Part shown: piece by piece, positions 37,086 to 61,640 of the stretch
Numbering within the stretch: position 1 is the first letter of the stretch
Layout of the letters: each line of letters opens with the position of its first letter
Origin: Sorangium aterium
GTDB taxonomy: Bacteria; Myxococcota_A; Polyangia; Polyangiales; Polyangiaceae
Length of the DNA stretch: 64,000 bases
Assembly (NCBI RefSeq): GCF_028368935.1
Contig: NZ_JAQNDK010000003.1
Location: 868,001 to 932,000 of the forward strand
Direction of reading: 5' to 3'
The notes under the pieces: generated by a model
What the model was told of the DNA's origin: nothing
The model's database searches: none
The model's input: the letters and a program-made list of their open reading frames with translations, nothing else
Translations under genes and position numbers: made by a program

Positions 37086-37283
37086 ATGGAATCGAAGGAT
37101 CAGTCGAACTCGGGCTCACGGGTCAAGACCGATAAGGGTGCAGGGGGAGGACTCACGACGAGTAATCCCTTTTCGCATGGCGCCACTCCCGTGAGTCCCT
37201 CGCCTTCGCCGCCGAACAGCGGCGCCACTCCGCAATCGACGCCTTCGGGAGGTGGCGCTGGCTCCTCCGGCTCCAAGAAGTAG
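37086..37283 (+). CDS. Gly/Pro-rich mini-protein B
   Basis: A 65-aa paralogue of mini-protein A: GAGGGLTTSNPFSHGATPVS followed by PSPSPPNSGATPQSTPSGGG and the same SKK end. GGAGG precedes the ATG at a normal distance. The spacing of 16 bp from A, and of 1 bp to the following membrane-protein gene, places it firmly in the operon. Retention of two copies with the same motif order suggests that sequence, not just composition, is under selection. Confidence 0.6.
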   Translation: MESKDQSNSGSRVKTDKGAGGGLTTSNPFSHGATPVSPSPSPPNSGATPQSTPSGGGAGSSGSKK

Positions 37284-37284
37284 T

Positions 37285-38607
37285 ATGCCAACAGGCGGAG
37301 CGCGGCTCCATACGACATTCGAGCGTCGAGCCATCATACGCAGGAATGGCGACATCGACGAACTATTCTCCTTGACCATAAGCAACGCTGGTTGCGCCCC
37401 GTACAGCTTCATCAAGCATACTCCGTGGGTGGCTTTTCGCGTTACGGATTCTCCGGCAGAATACGTCACTGCTTACGACTCGATGGAAAACAAGCAGTGG
37501 ATGTGCGAGCGAACTTGGCACGGATTCGTTGTTGGAACGCAGCCACTTACCGAGCTGGCTCCGGGGGGCGTCCGTTCATTCGGCGCTCATATTCATCGAC
37601 GAGGCCGATTGATCCCGGGGGAGCACGAAATCCACTTTGCGGATCCTTTCCTATTTTCTCCGATGAATCGCGCGCATGTCGAGCGAGACGTGTACCGTGT
37701 CATAGCGATTTTTCCGGAATGTACCGCGGGCTGGACTCTATCTACCCCACTACCGGACGGCGATTTTACGAGTCGAACCGTTACATGGGAGTTTTCCTAC
37801 GACGCGCAGGGCGTTAAGCAACTCTCGGCGACCGCGAGAGCATCAGTATCGGATGCCTCGATGCTTCTGTACGATGACATACTGGCTGAATTGCACGTTC
37901 TTGTCGGGCGCGGTGTCTGTGGGCACCCATTTGATGACGCTGATTTGCTGAGAAAAATCCGATACGCAGGTCAGGGTTTCATTCAGGACATCACAGCGCC
38001 AGTGTTGGGCATCTCCGAGTTGAGCTGGCGGGAGCGCTTGCTTCGGCTTCGCGCTGCACAGGAGGCAATGGCGGCCGAGCGCGTCTCTTTTTCTCGCAAC
38101 ATCAGGGGCAACGGGCCCAGTCCAGTGATGCTGCTGCAAGGGCATGGATCTCCTAATTGGAGTCGTGCAGACGCTCTTCTTAAGGTCACTGATTTCGATG
38201 CCGTCGGACCGTCGCAACATGGGAACGGCCAGCAAGTAGCACAGAGCTCGATCGGAAGAGACCTGATTCAAATTACCCACATTCATGCGGCGCCGGCCTT
38301 GGAGGAAACTTCATCCATGCCGGAGCGACCCGCCCGCGGAGAAGGAACTCCGATGCCCAAGAAGAAACCGGAAATGCTCGGTCAGGTGGTTGAGGACGCT
38401 TCGTCTGGAGGGAGGATTACTCAACAGACCGATGCGGGCAGTGATGCACAGGCAATAAGGCGGGTTCAAGCGGGGAAGGATATCGCACAGAAGAAGAGCG
38501 CGGCGGCGCAGATGTCGTTCAGCTTTGGGCGCGCTACGGGCGCTGGGGTGATCGCTCTGACTGTCGCCTTTCTGGCATGGTTGGCATACCAGTACCTGAC
38601 GCATTAA
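37285..38607 (+). CDS. Unknown protein with C-terminal membrane anchor
   Basis: A 440-aa protein. The first ~200 residues are beta-rich, Ig-like in look (LFSLTISNAGCAPYSFIKHT; GRLIPGEHEIHFADPFLF). A helical middle, a Pro/Lys/Gln-rich segment with PMPKKKPEMLGQ, and one C-terminal transmembrane helix (GVIALTVAFLAWLAYQYL) ending three residues later follow, so most of the protein faces the cytoplasm as a tail-anchored protein. It lies between the mini-proteins and the caspase gene. The AT content is visibly higher than in the chromosomal part. A membrane effector or caspase substrate is conceivable; family not recognised. Confidence 0.78.
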   Translation: MPTGGARLHTTFERRAIIRRNGDIDELFSLTISNAGCAPYSFIKHTPWVAFRVTDSPAEYVTAYDSMENKQWMCERTWHGFVVGTQPLTELAPGGVRSFGAHIHRRGRLIPGEHEIHFADPFLFSPMNRAHVERDVYRVIAIFPECTAGWTLSTPLPDGDFTSRTVTWEFSYDAQGVKQLSATARASVSDASMLLYDDILAELHVLVGRGVCGHPFDDADLLRKIRYAGQGFIQDITAPVLGISELSWRERLLRLRAAQEAMAAERVSFSRNIRGNGPSPVMLLQGHGSPNWSRADALLKVTDFDAVGPSQHGNGQQVAQSSIGRDLIQITHIHAAPALEETSSMPERPARGEGTPMPKKKPEMLGQVVEDASSGGRITQQTDAGSDAQAIRRVQAGKDIAQKKSAAAQMSFSFGRATGAGVIALTVAFLAWLAYQYLTH

Positions 38608-38695
38608 TGACGGTGAGTGCGGGTCTCCACAACAAGCCAATGGAACCGACCGCGCTTCGCGTCGCGGCACATTCGCAAATCATGGGGCGGGCCGG

Positions 38696-38803
38696 ATGGT
38701 AGACGGAACGGCAGACAAAGCGAACGCGCATCCTGGACGCTTGAAGGTTCCGCAGAAATTGCGGAGCGTTGCGAAGCTGAATGATGAAGGGGCGAATCGA
38801 TGA
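38696..38803 (+). CDS. Possible 35-aa leader/mini-ORF before the caspase
   Basis: ATG at 38696 opens a Lys/Arg/Asn-rich peptide (MVDGTADKANAHPGRLKVPQ, then KLRSVAKLNDEGANR) whose stop overlaps the caspase start as ATGA. There is no strong ribosome site. Overlap suggests translational coupling of the caspase to this ORF, but it may be chance. Confidence 0.35.
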   Translation: MVDGTADKANAHPGRLKVPQKLRSVAKLNDEGANR

Positions 38804-39747
38804 GGCGAGCACTTGTCGTGGGGATCAACGATTACATGGGAGCACCCCTTGCGGGCTGCGTTAATGACGCGAGTGCAGTTGCGACGATACTAGAAACGCA
38901 CGGAGACGGGTCCCCCAACTTCGGGGTCAGACTCATCACTGCCCCAAGCTCTTCAATCTCCAGGGGCGAGCTGCGAGAGGCCATCGATAAACTTTTTGCG
39001 GATGTCTGTGATATTGCCCTCTTCTATTTTTCAGGTCACGGGCTGATTAAGAGCACTGGCGGGTATATTATCACTCCGGATTACAAGAAGTACGATGAAG
39101 GTATCTCTATGGACGAGATTCTCGTGCTCGCTAACAATTCGCGCGCAAGAGATCGAGTCATCCTTCTTGACTGCTGCCATTCTGGTGCGTTCGGTTCGCC
39201 CGCCTTATCGGGGTCCAATACTGCTCAACTTGCCGAAGGGCTCTCGGTGATGACGGCAAGCCGATCTTCGGAGTCGGCATTCGAGGTGAACGGCTCAGGT
39301 GTCTTCACGAGCCTTGTCACTGAGGCGCTGAAAGGTGGAGCAGCGGATCTGCGGGGCCACGTGACGCCAGGTGGTGTCTACTCGTACGTTGATCGGGCAC
39401 TCGGACCATGGGATCAGCGACCAATCTTCAAGACAAACGTCACTCGTTTCACATCGCTGCGACAGGTCAGCCCGCCCATCCCACTGGCTACACTTCGAAA
39501 GCTCTGCGTGTACTTCCCACACGCATCGGACGAGTACCGGCTCGATCCATCGCACGAGTCCACGTCGCCGAGCGCGGATCCAGCAAACGTCCAAACAATG
39601 AAGGATCTGCAAAAATTCGTGAGTGTCGGGCTCGTTGTGCCCGTCGCTGAAGAACACATGTACTTCGCAGCCATGAACTCCAGATCGTGTCGTCTTACCG
39701 CCCTCGGGTACCACTATTGGCGGCTCGCTCACGAGAAGAAAATCTAA
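38800..39747 (+). CDS. Caspase-like (peptidase C14) protease
   Basis: A 315-aa protein. N-terminal caspase fold (ALVVGINDYMGAPLAGCVND), catalytic His in FYFSGHG (His 80) and catalytic Cys in LLDCCHSG (Cys 126), so the dyad is complete. After ~residue 240 a second domain (LRKLCVYFPHASDEY ... SCRLTALGYHYWRLA) looks like a winged-helix or effector-associated region. GAAGGGG precedes the ATG. It is followed after 21 bp by a TIR-like gene. Caspase-like proteases paired with TIR enzymes act as abortive-infection effectors in Thoeris variants (family knowledge), so activation by a TIR-made signal nucleotide is the leading hypothesis. Confidence 0.9.
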   Translation: MRRALVVGINDYMGAPLAGCVNDASAVATILETHGDGSPNFGVRLITAPSSSISRGELREAIDKLFADVCDIALFYFSGHGLIKSTGGYIITPDYKKYDEGISMDEILVLANNSRARDRVILLDCCHSGAFGSPALSGSNTAQLAEGLSVMTASRSSESAFEVNGSGVFTSLVTEALKGGAADLRGHVTPGGVYSYVDRALGPWDQRPIFKTNVTRFTSLRQVSPPIPLATLRKLCVYFPHASDEYRLDPSHESTSPSADPANVQTMKDLQKFVSVGLVVPVAEEHMYFAAMNSRSCRLTALGYHYWRLAHEKKI

Positions 39748-39768
39748 GTAATAAGCAAAGGGATCGCG

Positions 39769-40173
39769 ATGCCCTACCTCAAGACATACGATCTCTTCAT
39801 AAGTCATGCATGGGATTACAATGATGAGTACTACCGACTCGTGGCGATGCTCGATGGTGCGCCCAATTTCAAATGGCGGAATTACTCTGTTCCCGAGCAT
39901 GATCCGCTTGCAGGCGGCCGGCGGCTTGCCCAACAACTAGATGGCCAGATTCGTCCCGTAAATGCGGTCCTCATTTTAGCCGGCATGTACGTCAACCACA
40001 GAGGCTGGATTCAGAAGGAGATCGAACTGGCGCAGAGCTACAATAAGCCACTCATCGGTATCAGGCCGTGGGGGAACTACAATGTTCCACAGGTTGTTGC
40101 CATGACAGCGGAGACTATTGTCGGTTGGAAGACTGACAGTATCGTAGGCGCTGTGCGAGCCCATGCAATCTGA
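39769..40173 (+). CDS. TIR-like (ThsB / MTH538 type) protein
   Basis: A 134-aa single-domain protein. It opens with YDLFISHAWDYNDEYYRLV, the beta-A strand and loop of ThsB-like TIR proteins. NAVLILAGMYVNHRGWIQKE contains the strand and the glutamate (WIQKEIELA) equivalent to the catalytic Glu of NADase TIRs, and IGIRPWGNYNVPQVV is the PWG motif of this subfamily. AAGGGA is the ribosome site. It is the last gene of the operon with the caspase. In Thoeris, such proteins sense phage and make a cyclic-ADP-ribose-like signal; here the partner is a caspase rather than ThsA. Confidence 0.85.
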   Translation: MPYLKTYDLFISHAWDYNDEYYRLVAMLDGAPNFKWRNYSVPEHDPLAGGRRLAQQLDGQIRPVNAVLILAGMYVNHRGWIQKEIELAQSYNKPLIGIRPWGNYNVPQVVAMTAETIVGWKTDSIVGAVRAHAI

Positions 40174-41400: not shown

Positions 41401-41793
41401 ATGGCCACAAAAAAAAGGGTTTTCATCAGTTTTGACTTCGATCATGACGAAGGCGCAAAGATCATGCTCGCCGGACAAGCAAAACTACCTGATAGCCCGT
41501 TCGACTTTATAGATGCTTCAATTAAGGAGCATCTGACCGGCGACTGGAAGGAAAAGGTCCGGCGTCGAATGGGGAACGTTGATGTGGTTGTTGTGCTTTG
41601 TGGCGAACATACCCATACAGCGAGTGGTGTAGCTGCGGAACTGACGATTGCTCAGGAGAAGAATAAAGAATATTTCCACCTCGCTGCTTACTCTGACAAG
41701 ACTTGCACAAAGCCTACATCAGCGACAGCATCAGATAAGGTCTATAGGTGGACGTGGGACAATCTGAAGACACTTATTGGCGGAGGGAGATGA
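41401..41793 (+). CDS. Second TIR-like (MTH538 type) protein
   Basis: A 130-aa protein: KKRVFISFDFDHDEGAKIML at the start, DSPFDFIDASIKEHLTGDWK in the middle, VDVVVVLCGEHTHTASGVAA with a Glu in AAELTIAQEKNK, then YRWTWDNLKTLIGG. This is the DUF1863/MTH538 TIR-like fold, of a different subtype from the product at 39769 (FDFID motif, no PWG). GGAG lies 7 bases before the ATG. Its composition is markedly AT-richer than its surroundings. No effector is adjacent on the same strand; it could share the caspase system or be a solo sensor. Confidence 0.82.
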   Translation: MATKKRVFISFDFDHDEGAKIMLAGQAKLPDSPFDFIDASIKEHLTGDWKEKVRRRMGNVDVVVVLCGEHTHTASGVAAELTIAQEKNKEYFHLAAYSDKTCTKPTSATASDKVYRWTWDNLKTLIGGGR

Positions 41794-41842: not shown

Positions 41843-43762
41843 TCAGGGCGGAGTTGTCTCTGTAACGGGCGGCCTCTTCCGCATGCACTCGTCGAGGCCG
41901 GTCTGGAGGCTCGCTACGAAGGAGCCCGGGAGCGTCGGGTCGCCCATCACGTTCACGAAGAGGCGATCCTGCGCGATGCCGCCGCCCGGCCCGAAGCTCA
42001 TCCACACGAACATCGCGCGTCCCTTGATGTTCTCGAAGGGCACGCCCCCGCCGAGCCCGCCGCGCCAGCTGCGCGAGTCATGGCTGTTGTTGCGGTTGTC
42101 GCCCATCACCCACGCTTCGTCCGCGGCCGCTTTGAAGGGGCCCTGGAGATCGCCGCAGACGCCGCCCCGGCAGGTGGAGCCCAGCGTGCAGTCATTGCTC
42201 TCCACGCACATCATCCCGTCGGGGTTCTTTTCGTAGAGCGTGAAGTACGACTTGTCCCCGAGGTACTCGACGAACAGCTCCGCTTGCCGGCCCTCGTAGT
42301 GGTAGGGGCCGACGTGACAGTGGGGGACGAGCCAGCCGTTGATGATGGGGCGGCCGTTGATCGCCTCCAGCGTGTCGCCAGGGATGGCGATCGTCCGCTT
42401 GATGAAGTCCTGCTCCTTGTTCTCGGGGAACTTGAACACCATCACGTCGCCGCGCGACGGCGGCAGGCGAGGGAAGAGGCGCTGGCCGGTCCAGGGGATG
42501 AGCGGGCCGTAGGTGAACTTGTTGACGAAGATGTGGTCGCCGACCATGAGGGTCGGGATCATCGAGGCGCTCGGGATCTTGAATGCTTCGACGACGAAGG
42601 CGCGCAGGATGAGCGGCACGGCGATGGCCAACAACAGATTGCCGCGCAGCAGGCGTCGGAGCGGCTCATGGGTGCGCACAGGGTCGACTTGGACCCCGAT
42701 CCGCGCAGCGCGTGCCAGGGGCAAATCGTTGCCCAGAATGCTTATGACGAGAAACAGGATGGAGTACACGTTGATCACTACAGGGAGAGTCTGCTCAGCA
42801 ACAAAAACCTCAATCGGCGTAGCGGCATGAATTTGACCATGCGCCGGGGTGAGCGACCAGACGGTGAGCAGAGCGAAGCCGAAGGGAACGGAGACGTACC
42901 AGAAGAGGTAAAAGAGCATCCGACGCAGCCCCCAGGTCATCCGGGCGCGGAACCTTCCCGTATCACGCACGGCCGCGTGCTGTCGGAGAGCTCGCTCGAT
43001 CGCGCGCAGTCGATGGTGAGGACTCGGCGTTCTGGCCACAATCGCGCGTGCCGCGCCGGCCTGTCCGAATTGAACGGCGGCGACGCGTTCATCGATGTCG
43101 GGGAGGAATTCGAACGTGTCTTGCAGCGACCGCCACTGGGCGTTCCAATCACGCCAATCCTCATCGACGCGTAGAGGCGGCGCTACAACAAGCACGCGTC
43201 CAAGCCCTGGCTCGCTCGCGACGCGCTTCATCTCCCAGCGCAATGCTGGCCTGTCATCCGGCAATATCACGACGAGCGCTGAACGTCGTGCCGCATCCTT
43301 GACGCGCTTTTTCCAATCCGATCCGGCAAAAAGGCGCGATGCTCCCTCCGGCTGGGTTTTCTCCACCGGATTTCCCAGCGCGACAACTGGACCGAAGCGC
43401 CGAAGCATGTTGGCCAGCGCCTCTTCGAACGTGAGCGCGGGCCAGAGCCGGACCTGCTCCCACGGAAAGGAGCAGAGCAGTTGAAGCCAGAAGAACGGCC
43501 GTTTGATCGAAAGCTCGTCACGTCCGAAGGAGCGCAGGAAGAGGATCGGGGGCCGGGGATCCCGCGTGAGCTCCTCCTCGGCAGACAGTCTTCTGAGCCG
43601 CCGCGTGTAAACGAAGCCGGCGCTCGCGTACCAGATGAAGGGGAGCGCCAGAAGGTGAGCCGCGGGTAACTCAGTGAACGCTGTGAGCAGTACCGCAAAC
43701 TGCACCCCTATTACCAAGACAATCTGAAGCGCCGCACCAGCGAGCTTGTGTTGGACGCCCAT
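41843..43762 (-). CDS. Type I signal peptidase fused to a membrane 'FLRSF' domain
   Basis: A 639-aa protein. Two N-terminal transmembrane helices, then a cytoplasmic domain from ~residue 70 with ILFLRSFGRDELSIKR, PVVALGNPVEK and ALVVILPDDRPALRWEM. This is a TIR-like/Rossmannoid pattern known from membrane proteins of unknown role. Two more helices lead into a complete signal peptidase I: Ser in PSASMIPTL near 400, Lys in FIKRTIAIPGD near 455, and MGDNRNNSHDSR. A small Cys-rich insert (CVESNDCTLGSTCRGGVCG) lies between. Start at 43762; the frame extends to 44206, but that part has no coding character. The fusion may process exported substrates in response to a cytoplasmic signal. Confidence 0.85.
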   Translation of the reverse strand: MGVQHKLAGAALQIVLVIGVQFAVLLTAFTELPAAHLLALPFIWYASAGFVYTRRLRRLSAEEELTRDPRPPILFLRSFGRDELSIKRPFFWLQLLCSFPWEQVRLWPALTFEEALANMLRRFGPVVALGNPVEKTQPEGASRLFAGSDWKKRVKDAARRSALVVILPDDRPALRWEMKRVASEPGLGRVLVVAPPLRVDEDWRDWNAQWRSLQDTFEFLPDIDERVAAVQFGQAGAARAIVARTPSPHHRLRAIERALRQHAAVRDTGRFRARMTWGLRRMLFYLFWYVSVPFGFALLTVWSLTPAHGQIHAATPIEVFVAEQTLPVVINVYSILFLVISILGNDLPLARAARIGVQVDPVRTHEPLRRLLRGNLLLAIAVPLILRAFVVEAFKIPSASMIPTLMVGDHIFVNKFTYGPLIPWTGQRLFPRLPPSRGDVMVFKFPENKEQDFIKRTIAIPGDTLEAINGRPIINGWLVPHCHVGPYHYEGRQAELFVEYLGDKSYFTLYEKNPDGMMCVESNDCTLGSTCRGGVCGDLQGPFKAAADEAWVMGDNRNNSHDSRSWRGGLGGGVPFENIKGRAMFVWMSFGPGGGIAQDRLFVNVMGDPTLPGSFVASLQTGLDECMRKRPPVTETTPP

Positions 43763-44068
43763 GCACCACCTTCGGATTGGCGCCGCGGGAGCGCTCGCGC
43801 ATCGCCCTATCGGATCGGGCCTGCGTCGATACGCTACGCTGGCCACGCAGTGTACCCCCTCAAGATCGGAAATACCATAGATTTGAGATAGGTCGTGCAA
43901 AATTCCTATGATCGAATCGCTCTGAGGGACGCGTTCCGACTCTGGGATCCACACGGTCGAGGTCGCAGCGGCGGCGCTACGGCGGTGGGTGCAGCGATGG
44001 GTTCGGGCGTAGCGATGGTCGTGCCCGTGTGCGGCGGCGTCGCGCCGCGTCGCCGGCAGCGTCGTCGA
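43763..44068. other. Short region without gene
   Basis: The upstream region of the signal-peptidase fusion gene, with a slightly AT-rich stretch around 43860-43920. The remainder leads into an IS21 remnant. I see no promoter I would defend. Confidence 0.4.
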
Positions 44069-44455
44069 TGTATAGGGTAGAGACAGTCGACGTCGTGCTC
44101 CGCAGCCGCCGGATCGCGTCGCACCCTCGCTTTCGAGCGCGCGGCAAACACTCGATCGTGCGTGAGCAGATGCCGAGCGCCCAGCGGGCGCATGTGGAGT
44201 GGACACCCTCGTGCCATGAGGCGCGAGCTAAGAAGACCGGTCCGCCAGCCGGGCAACTCTGCGAGGTGATCCTGGTCGAGCGCGGCCTCACCCTGAGCAG
44301 GGCTTCCGGTCCTGCCTGGGCCTGCTGCCTCTCGGCAAGCGCTACGGCCAGGAGCGGCTGGAGGCTGCCTGCGTGCGCGCCGGGCCTGTCCACGATCGCT
44401 CATATAGGCACGTCGAGTCGAACCTGAAGAACGGGCCCGATCACGTGCACTTATC
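44069..44455 (+). pseudogene. istA: IS21 IstA transposase, C-terminal remnant
   Basis: A frame from 44069 reads YRVETVDVVLRSRRIASHPR, REQMPSAQRAHVEWTPS and KKTGPPAGQLCEVILVERG, and after a frameshift near 44285 continues HPEQGFRSCLGLLPLGKRYG and SYRHVESNLKNGPDHV. These are typical IstA C-terminal phrases. The catalytic core upstream is missing. Confidence 0.72.
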
Positions 44456-44501: not shown

Positions 44502-46415
44502 CTACGTCGCGTAATATGGTGACCAGTCGTCATCCGCAATACGACACGGCAGCTCTGACCCGTCGGGAAGCCTCGCAAGCTGGACAGGTTGAGTCAGTGT
44601 AAAATCGACATAACCAGTTAGCGGATGAACCAACAGAAGACTCTGCAACCCCTCTGTAAAATCGTCAATGCTGGAGATGCGCTGCTTTTGGTCAAAAAGC
44701 AAGCACCTCTCCGTAAAATCCAGCCACGGGATACGCGAGCGCCGCGCAACCACGTCATTCTCAGGTGCCATATAGATCCTTGGGTTCTTGAGCAGTCCGA
44801 TCTTGTTGGGGCCGCGACCGTCGCGCTTTTCAGGAATGACGTACTCGGCAACCTCGCCGGTGAGCGATGCGTTGAGCAGACGAGTCAGCATCAATCCGAG
44901 TGGGTAGATGTCGGTTGCCGCGGACACCGGTTGGACCGCCACCTGTTCAGGAGCTGCCCAACCAGGACTGAGTGCAGGAGACAACTCACCGATTGAAAGT
45001 GACAGCATATCGATAAGAACCGGACCACACTCAGTTAACAATATATTATGGGGTTTGATGTCGCCATGTATCCGCCCGGAACTATGGATTCCCCGGAGTT
45101 GGTCGGCGATTCGCAAGACGATCTCGGCAAGCGCCCGGCGCGACGCAGAAAAGACGATACTATAGCGCACGCGCTCGTCGTAGCGGGTCGCGGATAGGGC
45201 CCGCGAAAGAGCGTGCGGGTATTCGGCGAGCACACCTCGGAAGATATCTTCCGACAAGTCGGGCGAACGGTGGCGTGTGATTACGAAACGACACTCGGAA
45301 AATCCATGCATTGACTCCTCAATAAATGTTCGCCAGCTTTGGGGTGCCCCGCGGTGCTTTGCTCCGCCGGGGCGCCAGCCCGCAACATAGGTCTCATCGT
45401 TGTCGAGGGACAAGGCAATGAATCGGTTTTCGCCCCCGATGGATTGCACCCGCTCGTCGGGGCCGAAGCGTGAGACCAAGATTGAGGCCTGTGTGGTCTG
45501 CTCAGTGCTTCTATTGCGGAAATCTCGAACTTCGTTTTGTTGATAGCCGGAGGGGAGCGGAATTGTGAGGGCCAGAAGCGAAGGCGCGAAGAGCGTCGAA
45601 AGACTCTTATAGGACACGTAGCATGAGGGCATTGCCCCCGAATCGACAGGAATTTTCCAGATTCCTTTGTTCCGCCAGATTCGCTCTCCTTCTTCTACGA
45701 GCACTCTGCTGATCCCGTCTAGCGGAGCAGCCGTCTTTTCCCGCTCAAGAAGCTTCGCGATCCTCGAGAGCATACTGTCCAGCGATTGACTTCGTTTGAC
45801 TCCAAGGAGGAGCGGCAGCCCGTCCGGCCCCTTACCGATCACGACGCGAGCATTGGCGCGCCTTACAAGGTCATATCGAGGCTGGACAAGCACCAGCGCA
45901 TCATGCCCCAGGGCAGCGGGCTCGGGAATTTCGATTCTTTGCCGATCGAAGTTGGCGAGAGCTTCCGTTACCAGGACGGCGAGCGATTCGGTAGTTCTAA
46001 AGAACTGGCGCACGCACTCCTGTCCTATCCGCGTTTTGAATGCGGCGAGTTTTTCCGCAAGGGGGGCTGGATCGATATAGGGAGGCGGCCAGGGATGCAT
46101 CGGCTCGATAAAGAAGGCGAGCACGGGGATATTCCGCTTGCGGGCTTCGTCATACTCGGCCTCGACGAAGCTTCGTTCCTCACCGGGGGGTACGGTGCCG
46201 TAGCGGTGGGCCAGCACGAGGATGAGCAGATCTGAGGAGGAAACTCTCTCGATGGAGACCGCGAGCGCGGTGCGCTCGTCAGCCGACCAGTAGATCATAT
46301 CCTCGCCGTGGTTCTGCAGCCGCCGGATGGCAGTGTGGACCGTCTCCCGATAATCGATCAGATCGTCGAAAGTCGAAGAAATGAATATATTCAATGGATT
46401 ATTTACTCGTCCCAT
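44502..46415 (-). CDS. DUF4062 - protein kinase-like fusion
   Basis: A 637-aa protein. Residues ~8-160 are DUF4062 (NIFISSTFDDLIDYRETVHT, SSDLLILVLAHRYGTVP, FVEAEYDEARKRNIPVLAFF), a TIR-superfamily domain usually placed in front of STAND NTPases. A middle linker (residues ~170-380) is unassigned. The C-terminal ~250 residues are kinase-like: HGDIKPHNILL near 450, then LIDMLSLS where DFG should be, and GWAAPEQV. The metal-binding DFG is replaced by DML and no clear glycine loop is visible, so it may be a pseudokinase or an atypical kinase. It is single, on the minus strand, and AT-richer than the chromosome. Likely part of the conflict region. Confidence 0.83.
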   Translation of the reverse strand: MGRVNNPLNIFISSTFDDLIDYRETVHTAIRRLQNHGEDMIYWSADERTALAVSIERVSSSDLLILVLAHRYGTVPPGEERSFVEAEYDEARKRNIPVLAFFIEPMHPWPPPYIDPAPLAEKLAAFKTRIGQECVRQFFRTTESLAVLVTEALANFDRQRIEIPEPAALGHDALVLVQPRYDLVRRANARVVIGKGPDGLPLLLGVKRSQSLDSMLSRIAKLLEREKTAAPLDGISRVLVEEGERIWRNKGIWKIPVDSGAMPSCYVSYKSLSTLFAPSLLALTIPLPSGYQQNEVRDFRNRSTEQTTQASILVSRFGPDERVQSIGGENRFIALSLDNDETYVAGWRPGGAKHRGAPQSWRTFIEESMHGFSECRFVITRHRSPDLSEDIFRGVLAEYPHALSRALSATRYDERVRYSIVFSASRRALAEIVLRIADQLRGIHSSGRIHGDIKPHNILLTECGPVLIDMLSLSIGELSPALSPGWAAPEQVAVQPVSAATDIYPLGLMLTRLLNASLTGEVAEYVIPEKRDGRGPNKIGLLKNPRIYMAPENDVVARRSRIPWLDFTERCLLFDQKQRISSIDDFTEGLQSLLLVHPLTGYVDFTLTQPVQLARLPDGSELPCRIADDDWSPYYAT

Positions 46416-49413: not shown

Positions 49414-49587
49414 GGACCACTTGCCAAACCAGCCACCCAACGAAATGGCGTTTTCGTCGGGTGGGCCAGCGGCGAGCGCGGACCGAAGCACCCGCAACGG
49501 GGAGCCGTGTTGATGCACGATGCACACGAAGATCGCGTTGCGCCCCCAGAGTCCCCGGGCTACCGTGCGCCTGCGACTGGAGGATCC

Positions 49588-50370
49588 ATGCACGGGCGCG
49601 CCAATGTTTTTGCAATTCATTCCTGGGATGACGCCGACGCCTTGCGACGTATGGAGGGGCTGCTACGCGTCGCCGACCCTAGCCTCGCCCACTACTCCGT
49701 GCTTCCCGAGCGGGCCCTCCAGGGGACGTCCGAGGAGGTAGAGCGGAACATCACCCACCGGATCGCCGTCGCGACGGCAGTCGTGGTGATGAACACGCCC
49801 GGGCTCCACCAACGCGAGACGGCGACATTCGAGATGGAGACGGCGGTGCGAATGGGTAAGCGCATCATCGTTGTGTAACCCTACGGGGACTTCGACTCGC
49901 CTATTCCGCAAGTACTGGACGGGCACGTCTACCGTTACGCTACCTGGCGGAGCGACGTCGTGGGCAGGGCCATCCGTGGGGAGTATCCCCAGGATGGACG
50001 GGTATTCGACCTCGCTGAGATCGCCGACCGTCGGGTGCTCATCAGTATTCTGGCGGCTGGAGTTGCTACGGTAAGCTTCGTCGTCATCGCCCGTGCGGCC
50101 AGCGCGTTTCAGGCGCTCCAGCAGGACCTCGCCGCCCGAGGCATCGATCTGCGCTGGGATGGTGAGGCCACGCGCACGGTGGTCGAGCACGCGGTCGTGG
50201 GTGCGGGCATTGGTCTGCTTCTCGGGGCGCTCAGCGGAGATGGAAGGACCGCTTTCTACGCAGCAGCGGGAGGCGCGGCGATCGGCGCCGCTACGGGCGT
50301 GCACCGCGTGTACAACGCGCGCCTGATCGGCACGACCCATCTGCGCGTCCTCACGATCGAGCCCATATAG
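49588..50370 (+). pseudogene. TIR-like / membrane protein broken by one stop codon
   Basis: ATG at 49588 follows GGAGGATCC. The first 96 codons are a ThsB-like TIR domain: HGRANVFAIHSWDDADALRR, TAVVVMNTPGLHQRETATFE, GKRIIVV. A TAA at 49876-49878 then interrupts, but the same frame continues immediately with PYGDFDSPIPQVLDGHVYRY and a membrane segment (VLISILAAGVATVSFVVIA), then a Gly/Ala-rich hydrophobic stretch (GIGLLLGALSGDGRTAFYAA), to 50370. The relative at 39769 reads IRPWG here, so Q or R is expected; CAA to TAA explains it in one change. Without it the product would be 260 aa. Confidence 0.78.
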
Positions 50371-53550: not shown

Positions 53551-53808
53551 TCAGTCGGTGTGGAGGGGGAGGCGGTCATCGCCGTCGAGGACGGCGTGGT
53601 AGCGAGCGAGAGCGTGGTCGAGCCGATCGAGGTAGTGGAGCACGACGTCGACGGCGTAGAGGCGAGGGCAAAGCGGATCCGGGTCGCTCGGGTAGGGCGC
53701 GGTGAGCGCGTCGCGGGCGAGCGCGAGGGAAACGACGAGGGCGGCGACTGCGCTGCCCTCGACGTCACCGCGCCGCGTGTCCCCCTCGGCCAGGGGGGCG
53801 GGGTTCAT
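53551..53808 (-). CDS. 85-aa protein of the transposon
   Basis: Starts at the ATG overlapping the ATPase stop (4 bp). Helical, acidic protein (AVDVVLHYLDRLDHALARYH; LDGDDRLPLH), no known motif. As the last gene of the transposon operon it is likely an accessory factor. The function is unknown. Confidence 0.6.
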   Translation of the reverse strand: MNPAPLAEGDTRRGDVEGSAVAALVVSLALARDALTAPYPSDPDPLCPRLYAVDVVLHYLDRLDHALARYHAVLDGDDRLPLHTD

Positions 53809-54620
53809 CCGGGCTCCTCTGCGTCCAGTTGCAGGATGCGGCTGAAGACATCGCGCTCGACGAGCTTGCGCTTCTTGCGCGCAGCGGCTCGAAGAGCGGC
53901 CGTGGCGAGTCGGTCGGTGTCGCGCAGGCTGCCGGCGGCCGCCTCGTGCAGCATCGCGATCGCGTCGGTGGTGAAGAGCTCTTTCGCGCAGCCGACTCGG
54001 TTGAGACGTACACGCAGATAGTCGGCCGTATCGTCCGGCGTGAGCGGATCGATGGTCAATCGGTAATGGAGGCGCGAATACAGGGAGCGATTGCGGCGCA
54101 CGCGGAGCCGCTCGCCGAGCTCGGGCAAGCCAAGCAACACGAGCGAAAGCAATGCGCGGCTATCCCAGGCGTAATTAAGGAGTATGTGAAGATGATCGAG
54201 TGTATCCTGATGAAGTAGATGGGCCTCATCGAGGACGAAGACCGGAAATACTCGTTCCTTCGCGAGTTCCTCGACGTGCGTGCTGACCGCGTAGAAGACG
54301 TCTCCAGCGGTGCTGCAGCGCGCGAGACCGAGCGCCAGACAGAGCTGGCGATAGAAGTCCCGGCGTCCAAGCGTCACGTTGGCGCAGTAGGTCAAGCGAA
54401 ACGTCTGCGGCGAAAGGGCATGACGGAGCGCGCGGAGGAGACACGTCTTGCCAACGCCTGGGTCACCAGCGAGGAGCACGCTCTTTCTGGCGTGCACCGC
54501 TTCGATGAGCATCTCGAGTATCGCCTGCTTGGACGGAGGGAGCCAGAGCTCGCCGTCTTCGACCTCCTTTGAAAATGGCTCTGCGGTGAAGCTGAAGTAG
54601 CTACAAAAGTCCATGGTCAT
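53805..54620 (-). CDS. ExeA/TniB-like AAA ATPase of the transposon
   Basis: A 271-aa AAA+ protein: Walker A LLAGDPGVGKTCLLRAL near residue 50, Walker B FPVFVLDEAHLL near 135, and sensor region LVLLGLPELGERLRVRRN. FTAEPFSKEVEDGELWLPPS at the N-terminus is typical of ExeA-type ATPases. In Tn5053/Tn7-like systems such ATPases choose targets for the rve transposase (family knowledge). It overlaps the transposase gene by 4 bp at its start and the small gene by 4 bp at its end. Confidence 0.88.
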   Translation of the reverse strand: MTMDFCSYFSFTAEPFSKEVEDGELWLPPSKQAILEMLIEAVHARKSVLLAGDPGVGKTCLLRALRHALSPQTFRLTYCANVTLGRRDFYRQLCLALGLARCSTAGDVFYAVSTHVEELAKERVFPVFVLDEAHLLHQDTLDHLHILLNYAWDSRALLSLVLLGLPELGERLRVRRNRSLYSRLHYRLTIDPLTPDDTADYLRVRLNRVGCAKELFTTDAIAMLHEAAAGSLRDTDRLATAALRAAARKKRKLVERDVFSRILQLDAEEPG

Positions 54621-55966
54621 TCCTCCTCGCCATCGCGGGGCGTTCGTCCGAGAGCCTTGTCCAGAAGCGTTTTCGGCGGGTCGAAGGGCACCCGCGCCTC
54701 GTGCGCGACATCAAGGTTGCAGGCCGGCCGCGGGCGACGGGCGTTCTTCACCGGATCGACCCGGTGCAGGGCGAAGCGTTTGCCCTCGTGTTCGATCCAG
54801 GGCGGCTCGTTCGGCGTGACGAGGCACCGCGACACCGTGACGAGGTGGCCGGCGAGGAAGCCGAGATCGGTCTCCCAATCCTCTCCATCCATCGAGAGCG
54901 TGCTGTCGCGTCGGACGCGCCGACGGGCCTGGGTCGTGAGCGCGTCGCGGAGCTTCCGCTCGTCGAGGTTGTCGGTGACGTGGGGATACCCCTCGTACAC
55001 CTGCGCGGGGGATTTGCCGAAGAGCGCCGCGTGCGGTGTGCGGTGGTAGTGCTCGTCGACCCAGGCGTAGAGCCGGACGTTGAGGTCGTGCAGCGAGCCG
55101 AGCGCTCCGGTGAAGTCCACGCACCTCTCTCGCAACGTCCTCCAGAAGCGCTCCATCTTGCCGCGCGCGGGGGCGTCGTACGGACGGGCGTGGATCAGGG
55201 TAGTGCCGAGTCGCTCACACGCCAGGTGCAAGGTGTGCCCGCGGTAGGTCGAGCCGTTATCCAGGTAGAGGGCGTCGGGAGCGCCATGTTTGCGCAGTGC
55301 TCGGATGAAGAGCGCCAGCATGTCGACCTCCCGCTCGGCGCTCATCGCCTCGATCGCGAGGATGTACCGGGAGGCGTCGTCGAGCAGCGCGTGGATCCGC
55401 ACCGGCGCCACGCTGCCGCCAACGAGGATCGGTGACACATGACACACGTCGCCGTGCCACAGAGCGCCGGGGTGCTCGGCCTGCCAGCGCAACCGCACCT
55501 TGCCGCCCGTGCGATCGCGCAGCGCGACGCGATCAAGGCGGTGTTCGGCGTACAGGCGTCGCACCGTGGTGGCGGAGATGGCCTCCTTGTCGATCCGGCC
55601 CGCCGCGATCAGCGTGTCGAGGATGAGCGAGACCGAGGCGCTCGGGTGCTCTTCTCGAATGTCGAGCAGCATCTGCCGTTGCTCGGGGGTGAGCTCGCGC
55701 GCCCGTCCCTTGTCCTTGCGGGGCTTGGGACGCAAGCCTTCGAGACCTTCGGTCTTGTACGCGTAGTACCAACGCTCGAGCGTGGGGACCGAGTAAGTGC
55801 GCGGAGAATGGGCGCGCGGTGGGCGAAACCGCTGTTTGCTCAGGTCGGCGAGCGCTTCGGCGAGCTCTCCCCGGTCGAGCTCGCGGTGCATGAGCGAGCC
55901 GATGATCTCACTGCGATAGAGCGCTACCGCTTCCGCGTGGTCCTTCGGCTTGAGGGGGTCTTGCAC
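54617..55966 (-). CDS. DDE (rve) transposase of the Mu/Tn7-like transposon
   Basis: A 449-aa protein. N-terminal HTH region (TYSVPTLERWYYAYKTEGLE, then LTPEQRQMLLDIREEHPSAS). The rve catalytic triad is visible: Asp in LWHGDVCHVSP, Asp in LYLDNGSTYRG and Glu in GKMERFWRTLRER. A beta-barrel-like C-terminus follows. The GTG at 55966 is preferred, after AAAGGA; the frame runs to 56023 without support. The stop overlaps the ATPase start. All catalytic residues are present. Confidence 0.88.
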   Translation of the reverse strand: MQDPLKPKDHAEAVALYRSEIIGSLMHRELDRGELAEALADLSKQRFRPPRAHSPRTYSVPTLERWYYAYKTEGLEGLRPKPRKDKGRARELTPEQRQMLLDIREEHPSASVSLILDTLIAAGRIDKEAISATTVRRLYAEHRLDRVALRDRTGGKVRLRWQAEHPGALWHGDVCHVSPILVGGSVAPVRIHALLDDASRYILAIEAMSAEREVDMLALFIRALRKHGAPDALYLDNGSTYRGHTLHLACERLGTTLIHARPYDAPARGKMERFWRTLRERCVDFTGALGSLHDLNVRLYAWVDEHYHRTPHAALFGKSPAQVYEGYPHVTDNLDERKLRDALTTQARRRVRRDSTLSMDGEDWETDLGFLAGHLVTVSRCLVTPNEPPWIEHEGKRFALHRVDPVKNARRPRPACNLDVAHEARVPFDPPKTLLDKALGRTPRDGEEE

Positions 55967-56092
55967 GTCGTGTCCTTTCCGGACCGGTGACACCGCACCG
56001 GCCGCACAGCCATCCAAGCGCAAGGCGCTCCGCCGACCGAGGATCCAGCCGGGTGGAGCCCGACATGAGCCCGAGAAGCGGGCCGCTCGCCA

Positions 56093-57776: not shown

Positions 57777-59375
57777 GTGAGCAAGTCGCTCGATGAGCAG
57801 ATTCATGAGCTGAAGGACAAGCTGGCGCGCGCCGCGCACGAGCGCGACGAGTACCGCAAGCTCTACGAGCTCGCCAGCATCGAGCTGGAGCGGCTTCGCC
57901 GCCACATCTTCGGCCAGAAGGCCGAGCACGTCGACCCTGGGCAGATGCAGCTCGCCTTCGACGCCATCGTCCAGATGCTCGCGGGGGCAGCGGCGTCACC
58001 CGATACCGGCACCGCGAGCACGCCTGAGGACGACGGCGCTGCGCCAGGAGGCGGCTCTGGGGGCAACGGCAAGGGGCGCAGGAGCACCCCGCACGGACGG
58101 CAGAAGCTGCCCGAGCACCTGCCGGTCGAGCGGATCGAGCTGCTGCCGCCCCAGATCCGCGATGAGCGCGCCGCCGAGATGGTCCGCATCGGCGAAGAGG
58201 TCTCCGAGACGCTGGAGTGGAGACCCGCGAGCTTCGTGCGGCTGCAAATCGTGCGACCCAAGTTTGCCACCAGGGGCGAGCCCGAAGCCGGCGTCGTCAT
58301 CGCGGACGTAGCCGACAGCCCCGTGCCCCGGTCGCTGGCCGGGCCAGGGCTGCTCGCGCACGTGCTGGTGAGCAAGTACGGCGATCATCTGCCGCTGCAT
58401 CGGCAGGAGAAGATCTATGAGCGCCAAGGGGTGCACCTGGCGCGCTCGACGCTCTGCGGCTGGGTGGGCTCGTGCGCCGAGGTGCTGGGCTATCTGGTCG
58501 CCGCCATGGCCAAGGACGCGCTCTCGGCCCATTGCATCGCCATCGATGCCACCGGGGTGCTCGTGCAGGCCAAGGACAAGTGCCGGCGTGGACACTTCTG
58601 GGTGCTCGTGGCCGACCGCGACCACGTGCTCTTCCGCTTCACGCCGCGTCACAACCAGGATGGCCCCAAGGAGTTTCTCCGCGGGTACAAGGGCTACGTC
58701 CAGGCCGACGCATCGAGCGTCTACGAGGAGCTGTTCCGGACCGAGCAGGTCACCGAGGTCGGCTGCTGGGCCCATTGCCGCCGGCGCTTCTTCGAAGCGA
58801 TGTCGTCGGACCGGGAGCGTGCGATGACGGCGCTCGGCTTCATTCACCAGCTCTTCGCCATCGACAAGGCGACCAAGGACCTGGCCCCCGGTCGCCGCAC
58901 CGAGCAGCGCCGAAGCCATGCCCAGCCCGTGCTCGATGCCTTCCGCGCGTGGCTCGACAGCGAGGAGCTGCTCGTGCTGCCCAGGAGCCCCATCGCTGGC
59001 GCCATTGGGTATGCGCGCAACCAGTGGCTCGCACTCATCCGCTTCCTTGAGGATGGGCGGCTCCGCCTGGACAACAACCGCAGCGAGCTGGAGCTCCGCA
59101 GAGAGGCACTCGGGCGTAAAAACTGGATTTTCGTGGGCAGCGACGATGGGGCGGAGTGGAACGCCATCATCGTGTCGCTGATCGCCTCCTGCGCCTTGCA
59201 CCAGATTGACCCCTGGGCCTACCTGCGCGACGTGCTGATCCTGCTGCCGAGCTGGCCGCGCGAGCGGATCCTCGAGCTCGCTCCCAAGTCCTGGAAGCAG
59301 ACCCTCGAGAACACCGACGCTCGGCAGCGGCTCGCTGACAGCCCGTGGACGGCGCCGGTCACGCTGGCCGCGTGA
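57777..59375 (+). CDS. tnpC: IS66 transposase TnpC
   Basis: A complete 532-aa transposase. N-terminal leucine-zipper-like helix (KDKLARAAHERDEYRKLYEL), zinc-finger/linker region, and the DDE domain with CIAIDATGVLVQAKDKCRRG, VQADASSVYEEL and the Glu in RLDNNRSELELRREALGRKN. WVFxGSDDGAEWNAI-type end and the DDE_IS66_C tail (HQIDPWAYLRDVLILLPSWP) are present. The start is the GTG at 57777. Intact in frame, so the element could be mobile if tnpA were supplied by the copy at 46885. Confidence 0.92.
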   Translation: MSKSLDEQIHELKDKLARAAHERDEYRKLYELASIELERLRRHIFGQKAEHVDPGQMQLAFDAIVQMLAGAAASPDTGTASTPEDDGAAPGGGSGGNGKGRRSTPHGRQKLPEHLPVERIELLPPQIRDERAAEMVRIGEEVSETLEWRPASFVRLQIVRPKFATRGEPEAGVVIADVADSPVPRSLAGPGLLAHVLVSKYGDHLPLHRQEKIYERQGVHLARSTLCGWVGSCAEVLGYLVAAMAKDALSAHCIAIDATGVLVQAKDKCRRGHFWVLVADRDHVLFRFTPRHNQDGPKEFLRGYKGYVQADASSVYEELFRTEQVTEVGCWAHCRRRFFEAMSSDRERAMTALGFIHQLFAIDKATKDLAPGRRTEQRRSHAQPVLDAFRAWLDSEELLVLPRSPIAGAIGYARNQWLALIRFLEDGRLRLDNNRSELELRREALGRKNWIFVGSDDGAEWNAIIVSLIASCALHQIDPWAYLRDVLILLPSWPRERILELAPKSWKQTLENTDARQRLADSPWTAPVTLAA

Positions 59376-59739: not shown

Positions 59740-59862
59740 TCAGGGCGCGTCGGCAGCGGTCGGAGCAGCGCTCGACGATCTCGCCCAGGCGTCGGGCAGC
59801 AACTCGTCCAGCCGGTCGCGCGGCCAGCCCGCCTTCCACTTGCCACCCACCGAGCGGCGCAT
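59740..59862 (-). pseudogene. IS66 C-terminal domain scrap
   Basis: The minus strand reads KAGWPRDRLDELLPDAW, the last motif of another IS66-type transposase (DDE_Tnp_IS66_C), and then stops. It abuts the recombinase stop codon. Confidence 0.55.
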
Positions 59863-61556
59863 CAGCTCTGCCGACGCTCGACCGGAGCGACGGCACGTTC
59901 TGGCGAGCCGAGGTAATCACGCGCAGACATGGTTGGCGCAGGTAGCGCAGCGACGCTCGGGGACAGCGAGGCGGTGGGCAAGGGGGCCGACAGCGCAGCG
60001 ACGTTCGGCGCAGGGCGGAGCGCTGGCAATTCCTGCGCGCCATGCGCCGCTGATATCTGCGACGGATCGCGCCATGTGGTCCTGATCTGCTTGTCCTTCG
60101 TTGCCTCGACTTTCGAGGAGAACGAACGGATAATTGATCGTTGGATGTCTAGCGGCAAAACATTCCACTCGTCAACTATCTGTTGAACATAAGCGCGTGC
60201 ATGCTTTCGAGTCTCGACGGTGTCGTTGCCTGCCGTTTCCTTGAACTCGGCTTCCTTCGCCTCGATCGCTGCAAGCGCGTCGTCGAGGCGATTCAGTTCT
60301 GTCTTCACGTCGTCAACGGTGAAGAGACCCGTTGCGACAAATTCCACGACTCGCTGTCGCGACATCTTGATCTCGCGGCGCTGGGCGGCAAAGTCTGGCT
60401 TCTCGATTTGACGCGGCGGTCTAGTCAGCGAAGTGAGGAGCGAGCGAGCAAACGTCAAGAATTGCTCGCTTGCGGCAGCGTCCGCGTCCGGCTGGCGAAC
60501 CCACGCGCTGAGCTTGCAGCGGACGCCTTTCTCCTTCTGCTCCACATGGCCACGGCAGACGTAGTAGCCCACCTTGTGTCGGCCGCTGCGGTCCACCGGA
60601 CGGGCAGCGACGCTGCCGCCGCATTCCGCGCAACGGCAGAAGCCGCGCAGCAAGTAGTTCGCCGTCGCGGACGTGTCCTGGGGCTTCCTCCCGCGACGAC
60701 GGCCTCTCAATGCAAGCTGGGCGTTGTTGAATGTCTCATCGTCGATGATCGCCTCGTGTGCAGGGATCCACTCGGCCGGAAGTTGCACGACGCCGCGCGT
60801 GGCGCTCGGCCGCACGCTGGTCTTTGCGACACGGCCCGTGTAGGTACGGTTGCGCAGCGCGGTAAGAACCCAGGCGCGCCCGAACGCCTTGATGCTGCCG
60901 TACTCTTGACGAAGCCGCTTGGCGGTCGCGAATACGCTATAGCCTTCAAGGCAGAGCGCGAACATGCGACGCACCACCGCGGCGTGCTCCGGAACCACGC
61001 GGAGGGGGAGCGGTGTCTTCGTCCCTTTGGGCTTGGGCTGACGTTCGTAGCCGAACGGCGGATGCCCTTCGACGAAGTGCCCTTGTGCGCGCAGGTGCTT
61101 CCGCCCCCCTTCGGTTCGCTCCTTGATCCGACGGCGCTCCTGCTCTGCCCCGACCGCCCAGTTGGCGAGCGTGTCCTCTGCCATCGGCGAGCGCGAATCG
61201 AACCCCTTGTCAATGGCGACGAACACGGCGCCCTTGCGCATGATCTGCCGAACGTTCTTGACAATGAAGACCACGTCGCGCCCGAAGCGGTCGATGTCCG
61301 TCACGATGACCATGTCCCCCCGGCGGACGTCCGCCAGGAGCGCGGCGACCTTCTTCCTGTTCGCCTCGTTCTCCTCGCCGCCGCTCTCTACCTCCGGGAA
61401 CAGGATCGGCGCCGGCAGCGAATGGAGCCGGCAGTAGTTGCCGATCTTCTCGGCCTGGGCGTCCAGGGAGACGCCCGCGATCTCCTGCTCCCTCGTCGAG
61501 ACGCGCGGGTAGCCGAGCGTCCGCCGGATCGCGGCGTTGGGGGTTGCGTCTTTCAT
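59862..61556 (-). CDS. Large serine recombinase (integrase) of the element
   Basis: A 564-aa protein. Resolvase domain with catalytic Ser in GYPRVSTREQEIAGVSLDAQ (Ser 20) and the conserved VTDIDRFGRDVVFIVKNVRQ; recombinase domain from ~residue 150 (GHPPFGYERQPKPKGTKTPL; RMFALCLEGYSVFATAKRLR); zinc ribbon CRCAECGGSV ... YYVCRGH at ~305-345; a coiled-coil segment; and a Pro/Ala-rich tail. This is the layout of phage-type large serine integrases. The ATG at 61556 follows AGGTG; a GTG at 61565 is also possible. It lies 110 bp inside attR, as expected for the integrase of the element. Confidence 0.93.
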   Translation of the reverse strand: MKDATPNAAIRRTLGYPRVSTREQEIAGVSLDAQAEKIGNYCRLHSLPAPILFPEVESGGEENEANRKKVAALLADVRRGDMVIVTDIDRFGRDVVFIVKNVRQIMRKGAVFVAIDKGFDSRSPMAEDTLANWAVGAEQERRRIKERTEGGRKHLRAQGHFVEGHPPFGYERQPKPKGTKTPLPLRVVPEHAAVVRRMFALCLEGYSVFATAKRLRQEYGSIKAFGRAWVLTALRNRTYTGRVAKTSVRPSATRGVVQLPAEWIPAHEAIIDDETFNNAQLALRGRRRGRKPQDTSATANYLLRGFCRCAECGGSVAARPVDRSGRHKVGYYVCRGHVEQKEKGVRCKLSAWVRQPDADAAASEQFLTFARSLLTSLTRPPRQIEKPDFAAQRREIKMSRQRVVEFVATGLFTVDDVKTELNRLDDALAAIEAKEAEFKETAGNDTVETRKHARAYVQQIVDEWNVLPLDIQRSIIRSFSSKVEATKDKQIRTTWRDPSQISAAHGAQELPALRPAPNVAALSAPLPTASLSPSVAALPAPTMSARDYLGSPERAVAPVERRQS

Positions 61557-61640
61557 TTGTTTCACCTGTCCGAAAGGTTGATCATGCTCCAGCTCGCACG
61601 GCTGAGCAAATCGCCGGTTTTGGCCGGGATTTCGGCCTCC

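What the first reader, a model, noticed from the sequence alone, without database searches (positions are those of the whole stretch)
44502..46415. DUF4062 fused to a kinase-like domain lacking DFG
DUF4062 normally precedes STAND ATPases. Here it is joined to HGDIKPHN followed by LIDML in place of DFG. This gives a sensor with either a pseudokinase or an atypical kinase output, near other TIR-like genes.
Basis: partly seen in the sequence, partly recalled or inferred. Interest (0 to 1): 0.7.

Follow-up and report, generated by a model that had tools for sequence, protein, structure and literature searches.

The report
NAD-cutting TIR-like domain with kinase-like partner
In a horizontally acquired stretch of a large, probably myxobacterial genome, one gene joins a domain of a family recently shown to destroy NAD+ during phage infection to an unusual kinase-like module; the likeliest reading is a self-contained anti-phage switch in which the kinase-like half senses or controls and the first half kills.

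Summary
The gene is real but on the minus strand (44502-46415, 637 aa). DUF4062 (residues 10-91) and a protein-kinase C-lobe (424-581) both pass Pfam's cut-offs. D452, N457, D469 and APE are invariant in the ten members found of an undescribed kinase-like family to which residues 166-637 belong, all in one class. What is missing is a recognisable N-lobe: no canonical glycine loop and no conserved beta3 lysine. The likeliest reading is an NADase effector held by a kinase-like regulator. The fusion is the only one among about 70 DUF4062 genes examined in its class. The genome's two threshold-passing ThsB-type TIR genes lie within 7 kb, in a low-GC, transposon-rich island. This is a new architecture of a known kind; its activity and trigger are untested.

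The parts
44502..46415 (-). Whole gene, 637 aa: DUF4062 / TIR-like domain fused to a kinase-like module
   Evidence: GC 56.7%, GC3 0.63, against 0.80-0.88 GC3 for two kinase genes elsewhere in the window
45966..46397 (-). TIR-like NADase-type domain (DUF4062), residues 7-150; Pfam core residues 10-91
   Evidence: Pfam 4.8e-16; KpSwz, PDB 10wc, E 5.7e-6 over residues 7-150
46155..46157 (-). E87, equivalent of the catalytic Glu (E97 of KpSwz)
   Evidence: Glu in 30 of 32 aligned rows; the KpSwz row has Ala because the deposited construct is E97A (PMC13174449)
45201..45920 (-). N-terminal part of the kinase-like module, residues 166-405: family motif GxxPDGLP (194-201), invariant R208, R331 and E367; modelled alphaC-beta4-beta5 at 361-405
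44616..45146 (-). Kinase C-lobe, residues 424-600
   Evidence: Pfam, HHalign 99.8-99.9%, AlphaFold2, PDB fold matches
45045..45068 (-). Catalytic loop HGDIKPHN, residues 450-457
   Evidence: H, D, P and N invariant in the family
45003..45017 (-). LIDML, residues 467-471: the DFG position, Asp kept (D469)
   Evidence: alignment to PknG DLG; Asp invariant in the family
44943..44960 (-). WAAPEQ, residues 486-491: the APE motif
   Evidence: invariant in 10 of 10 family members
39769..40173 (+). Neighbouring ThsB-type TIR gene, directly after a caspase gene (38800-39747); context only
41401..41793 (+). Second ThsB-type TIR gene; context only

Best explanation
A single-gene, abortive-infection-type immune protein. 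The N-terminal TIR-like domain (DUF4062) is the executioner and would hydrolyse NAD+ with E87 once released or oligomerised. Residues 166-637, a kinase-like module taken from a stand-alone family of the same bacterial class, are the regulatory half: they keep a kinase C-lobe with D452, N457 and D469 and probably bind a nucleotide-metal ligand or a protein partner. A change in that module (a phage product, nucleotide state or phosphorylation) switches the NADase on. Shown by sequence: both domains, the catalytic Glu position, the conserved kinase residues, the island context. Inferred: NADase activity of this protein, the direction of control, the trigger, and defence as the function.
For: DUF4062 by Pfam and by KpSwz; E87 conserved; published NADase, abortive infection and auxiliary-domain sensing for KpSwz (PMC13174449). 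Residues 166-637 are homologous end to end to stand-alone proteins of about 450 aa without DUF4062, so this is a two-module fusion with the junction near 160. The genome's only DUF4062 gene and only two threshold-passing ThsB_TIR genes in 13.47 Mb lie within 7 kb. Low GC, transposases and a recombinase nearby, no DUF4062 in five congeners, and a very long branch of the module (2.74) suggest transfer and fast change.
Against: No activity data for this protein. The other members of the kinase-like family do not lie beside recognised defence genes (judged from ORF lists only), so the module may bring an unrelated role. DUF4062 is not always active: NWD1, NWD2 and NPHP3 did not hydrolyse NAD+ (PMC13174449). 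A single copy means selection on the fusion cannot be tested.
Confidence: 0.6

Rival explanations
1. The kinase-like half is an active atypical kinase and the true output; DUF4062 is a sensor or NAD-dependent regulator.
For: HxD Asp, Asn, DFG Asp, APE and the alphaF Asp are invariant in the family. Kinases act as effectors in defence: PADLOC's PD-T4-6 and MkoA models match this protein, and Stk2 matches two family members, all weakly and over the C-lobe.
Against: No recognisable glycine loop and no conserved beta3 Lys; stand-alone members vary at the catalytic-loop Lys (Ser or Ala in six). The DUF4062 catalytic Glu is kept, and DUF4062 is an executioner in KpSwz.
Confidence: 0.2
2. A sub-case of the best explanation: the kinase-like half is a catalytically dead scaffold (pseudokinase) that only oligomerises or holds the TIR-like domain.
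For: N-lobe ATP-binding features not recognisable; DFG reduced to D-x-L/I. Most kinases in related vWA-MoxR conflict systems have disrupted catalytic residues (PMC7159879).
Against: Strict conservation of D452, N457 and D469 at 23-29% overall identity is not expected of a pure scaffold.
Confidence: 0.3
3. A transferred fusion that is decaying or has no immune role.
For: Single copy, long branch, transposon-rich neighbourhood.
Against: Open for 637 codons; motifs in both halves intact; codon-position bias like a coding gene.
Confidence: 0.1

Closest known systems
Swarozyc (KpSwz, PDB 10wc; PMC13174449)
   Same: N-terminal DUF4062 TIR-like domain with the catalytic Glu position; single protein with a C-terminal second module; defence-island type context
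   Different: KpSwz carries a winged-helix auxiliary domain that binds the phage portal; here the sequence match stops at residue 150 and the second module is kinase-like
TEP1, NWD1, NWD2, NPHP3 (eukaryotic DUF4062 proteins)
   Same: DUF4062 domain
   Different: They share a STAND-type architecture; here there is no Walker A (GxxxxGK[ST]) and no NACHT or NB-ARC match
PknG and other Hanks-type bacterial kinases
   Same: C-lobe with HxDxKPxN-type loop, DxG-type Asp, APE; PknG is the top PDB sequence hit
   Different: No recognisable N-lobe motifs; a roughly 250-residue N-terminal part found only in the new family
Bacterial pseudokinase families with altered ATP- and metal-binding motifs (DYD, DLHK; PMC12599244)
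   Same: Altered motifs with the catalytic Asp kept
   Different: Not compared by sequence here; the DFG Asp is kept in this family
PD-T4-6, MAD6, Stk2, MkoA (defence kinases)
   Same: Kinase catalytic-loop similarity
   Different: Matches cover only the C-lobe; no DUF4062-containing PADLOC model among the 25 matches shown

Membership tests
DUF4062 / TIR-like NADase domain | Pfam PF13271 over cut-off | tested here: met
   59.2 bits, cut-off 24.7
DUF4062 / TIR-like NADase domain | Conserved catalytic Glu | tested here: met
   E87; Glu in 30 of 32 rows
DUF4062 / TIR-like NADase domain | NAD+ hydrolysis | not testable with these tools
   needs an assay
Swarozyc as defined by KpSwz | C-terminal portal-binding winged-helix auxiliary domain | tested here: not met
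   Sequence match to KpSwz ends at residue 150; residues 166-637 are homologous to kinase-like proteins
Swarozyc as defined by KpSwz | Antiphage activity triggered by a phage protein | not testable with these tools
   needs phage challenge
DUF4062-STAND proteins | NACHT or NB-ARC ATPase after DUF4062 | tested here: not met
   No such Pfam match, no Walker A motif
Protein kinase superfamily (C-lobe) | HxD Asp, catalytic-loop Asn, DFG Asp, APE, alphaF Asp, Arg before alphaI | tested here: met
   D452, N457, D469, PEQ 489-491, D502, R579 invariant in 10 of 10
Active Hanks-type protein kinase | beta3 Lys | tested here: inconclusive
   No Lys conserved in any candidate strand; R355 in 8 of 10 in one alignment. 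The alignment of this part is uncertain
Active Hanks-type protein kinase | Glycine-rich loop | tested here: inconclusive
   None at the aligned place; a GKGPDG stretch at 194-199 lies far upstream
Active Hanks-type protein kinase | alphaC Glu | tested here: inconclusive
   E367 invariant, in a modelled helix of moderate confidence
Active Hanks-type protein kinase | Bilobal fold | tested here: inconclusive
   C-lobe confident; alphaC-beta4-beta5 moderate; beta1-beta3 pLDDT under 50
PD-T4-6 defence kinase | Match over the whole kinase model | tested here: not met
   Best match covers model positions 112-209 of 327

The most novel reading that the evidence does not exclude
An NADase executioner controlled in cis by an atypical kinase of a new family: the kinase-like half binds ATP with a non-standard N-lobe (possibly the GxxPDG motif and R208 in place of glycine loop and Lys) and licenses or restrains NAD+ destruction by phosphorylating or nucleotide-gating its own TIR-like domain, a bacterial immune receptor in which a kinase replaces the STAND ATPase as the switch.
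Probability: 0.25. Interest if true: 0.8.

Novelty: new variant of a known kind. Interest (0 to 1): 0.5.

Why it matters
DUF4062 was shown to be an immune NADase only in 2026, and its authors say that partner domains and operon neighbours may bring mechanisms beyond those tested. A kinase-like module in the sensor place would be a further way to gate a TIR-type executioner, and one that can be tested with point mutants (E87, D452, D469). Independently, the module defines an undescribed kinase-like family with an unrecognisable N-lobe but strictly kept catalytic-loop and DFG aspartates.

Tried and rejected
E85 was first taken as the catalytic Glu because it pairs with the Glu in the 10wc chain; rejected, because that chain is the E97A mutant and the conserved Glu is E87. 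Degenerate-pattern scans for close full-length relatives found kinases only; viral contigs gave none of the fusion (L158 is a weak kinase match); plasmids had no record covering 80% of the query. Literature searches for kinase-TIR defence fusions found nothing specific. A frameshift or assembly artefact was considered and rejected: the homology runs in one frame from residue 166 almost to the end, and GC3 is similar in both halves. HHalign never aligned the N-lobe unless forced. No promoter or terminator signal above chance was found around the gene.

Full report
What is there. The feature is one ORF of 637 codons at 44502-46415 on the minus strand (the plus strand of the same stretch is interrupted by stops). 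Pfam finds DUF4062 at residues 10-91 (E 4.8e-16) and Pkinase at 424-581 (E 5.3e-11), both above the curated cut-offs.

The DUF4062 half. A 2026 preprint (PMC13174449) shows that DUF4062 is a TIR-like NADase: Klebsiella KpSwz depletes NAD+ on phage infection, is triggered by the phage portal that its auxiliary domain binds, and needs E97. Our residues 7-150 match KpSwz (PDB 10wc, E 5.7e-6). In that alignment the Glu of the chain pairs with our E85, but the deposited chain is, by the paper's description of its structures, the E97A construct; the Ala two residues further pairs with our E87. An alignment of 32 DUF4062 rows has Glu at the E87 column in 30 (the other two are a gap and KpSwz's Ala), and at the E85 column in 15. 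E87 is therefore taken as the catalytic Glu; this step is inference from the alignment and the paper. The SSTF-x-D stretch and the D62, R71 and Y72 positions are also those of the family.

The kinase-like half. The best solved relative by sequence is PknG, whose DLG pairs with our DML. So the 'missing DFG' is a changed F and G; the metal-binding Asp is there. A search with residues 1-425 in related genomes gave a weak match (165-215, L074) in an ORF of 456 aa with HGDVKPAN; BLASTP of residues 166-637 against it gives E 1e-43 over 442 columns, 28% identity. The two-row profile then found ten full-length members in the 317 genomes of the class, this one included, and none outside the class in a sample of 377 genomes of the phylum at E 1e-25. 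In these ten, H450, D452, P455, N457, D469, WAAPEQ 486-491, D502, G507 and R579 are invariant; the DFG place reads DML, DPI, DPL, DGL or DSL; the catalytic-loop Lys is Ala or Ser in six. Invariant further upstream are P197-D198-G199-L200, R208, R331 and E367. No Lys is conserved where beta3 could be. HHalign of the family with ordinary kinases gives 99.8-99.9% over the C-lobe and leaves the N-lobe out unless forced.

Structure. AlphaFold2 on the full protein with 40 kinase rows: most of the C-lobe at pLDDT about 85-97, most of residues 130-414 under 50; Foldseek matches are kinases, PknG first. A second model, residues 305-612 with 28 kinase rows including their N-lobes: mean pLDDT 69.7, pTM 0.72, a helix at 361-381 holding E367 and two strands at 390-405 with pLDDT about 64-84, and the part where beta1-beta3 should lie under 50. 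PknB is matched with Z 20.6, rmsd 3.8, 243 residues. Both alignments were of kinases, so the models are not independent of the sequence evidence; they do not refute a kinase fold, and they leave the ATP-binding half open.

The fusion. The other nine family members were read as stand-alone ORFs of 434-510 aa (one cut by its contig's start) without DUF4062, and their neighbours, judged only from ORF lists and N-terminal letters, did not look like defence genes. Of 83 DUF4062 places in the class, about 70 were examined, some cut by the edge of the stretch; only this gene joins DUF4062 to a kinase. The tree puts the window's module between two subgroups, nearer the one of G298, G545 and G537, on a branch of 2.74 changes per column, so its place is unsure.

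Context. This 13.47-Mb genome has one DUF4062 match and two ThsB_TIR matches over the cut-off; all three are within 7 kb. A caspase gene (one of ten caspase matches in the genome) sits directly before the first TIR gene. The genes of the caspase-TIR group, the second TIR gene and this gene have 48-57% GC against 71% for two kinase genes elsewhere in the window. An integrase/AAA pair, IS66 and a serine recombinase follow. Five congeners have no DUF4062 match. This supports a horizontally acquired defence-type island, without proving that this gene defends.

Mechanism. In KpSwz, and by analogy with other TIR proteins, the TIR-like domain executes and the second domain senses. Applied here, the kinase-like half is the controller. 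The strict conservation of D452, N457 and D469 makes nucleotide-metal binding likely; whether it transfers phosphate is open.

Known or new. DUF4062 as NADase, kinases in defence and kinase-like domains with lost motifs are all known. What is new, as far as these searches reach, is the pairing, and the family behind residues 166-637. Literature searched was open-access only; the figure of PMC13174449 that lists DUF4062 domain partners was not held, so a kinase partner may already be recorded there.

Noticed in passing
window 37252-40173 (+): Three adjacent same-strand genes: a 451-aa protein with a C-terminal hydrophobic segment and no Pfam or PADLOC match, a caspase (C14; nearest NCBIfam model caspase_w_EACC1, below its cut-off), and a ThsB-type TIR protein: looks like a separate conflict system.
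   Followed up: partly
window 41401-41793 (+): Second ThsB-type TIR gene, GC 48%, the lowest of the genes measured.
   Followed up: no
window 49507-49878 (+): Weak ThsB-like TIR match (below Pfam cut-off; PADLOC ThsB 7e-7), followed by a small ORF with weak glycine-zipper-like matches at 49960-50370.
   Followed up: no
window 41843-44206 (-): Signal peptidase I domain at the C-terminus of a 787-aa ORF, preceded by a membrane-like N-terminal part of unknown kind.
   Followed up: no
window 53805-56023 (-), 57777-59375 (+), 59862-61565 (-): Integrase plus AAA ATPase pair (TniA/TniB-like by content), IS66 transposase and a large serine recombinase: mobile-element cluster beside the island.
   Followed up: partly
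L121-L129 (one gene each): Stand-alone kinase-like family of about 450 aa with GxAPDGLP motif and D-x-L/I in place of DFG, in a few genomes of the class; function unknown.
   Followed up: partly
L080 and L202: DUF4062 gene with a separate ordinary kinase ORF next to it; possible split version of the same pairing, or chance.
   Followed up: no
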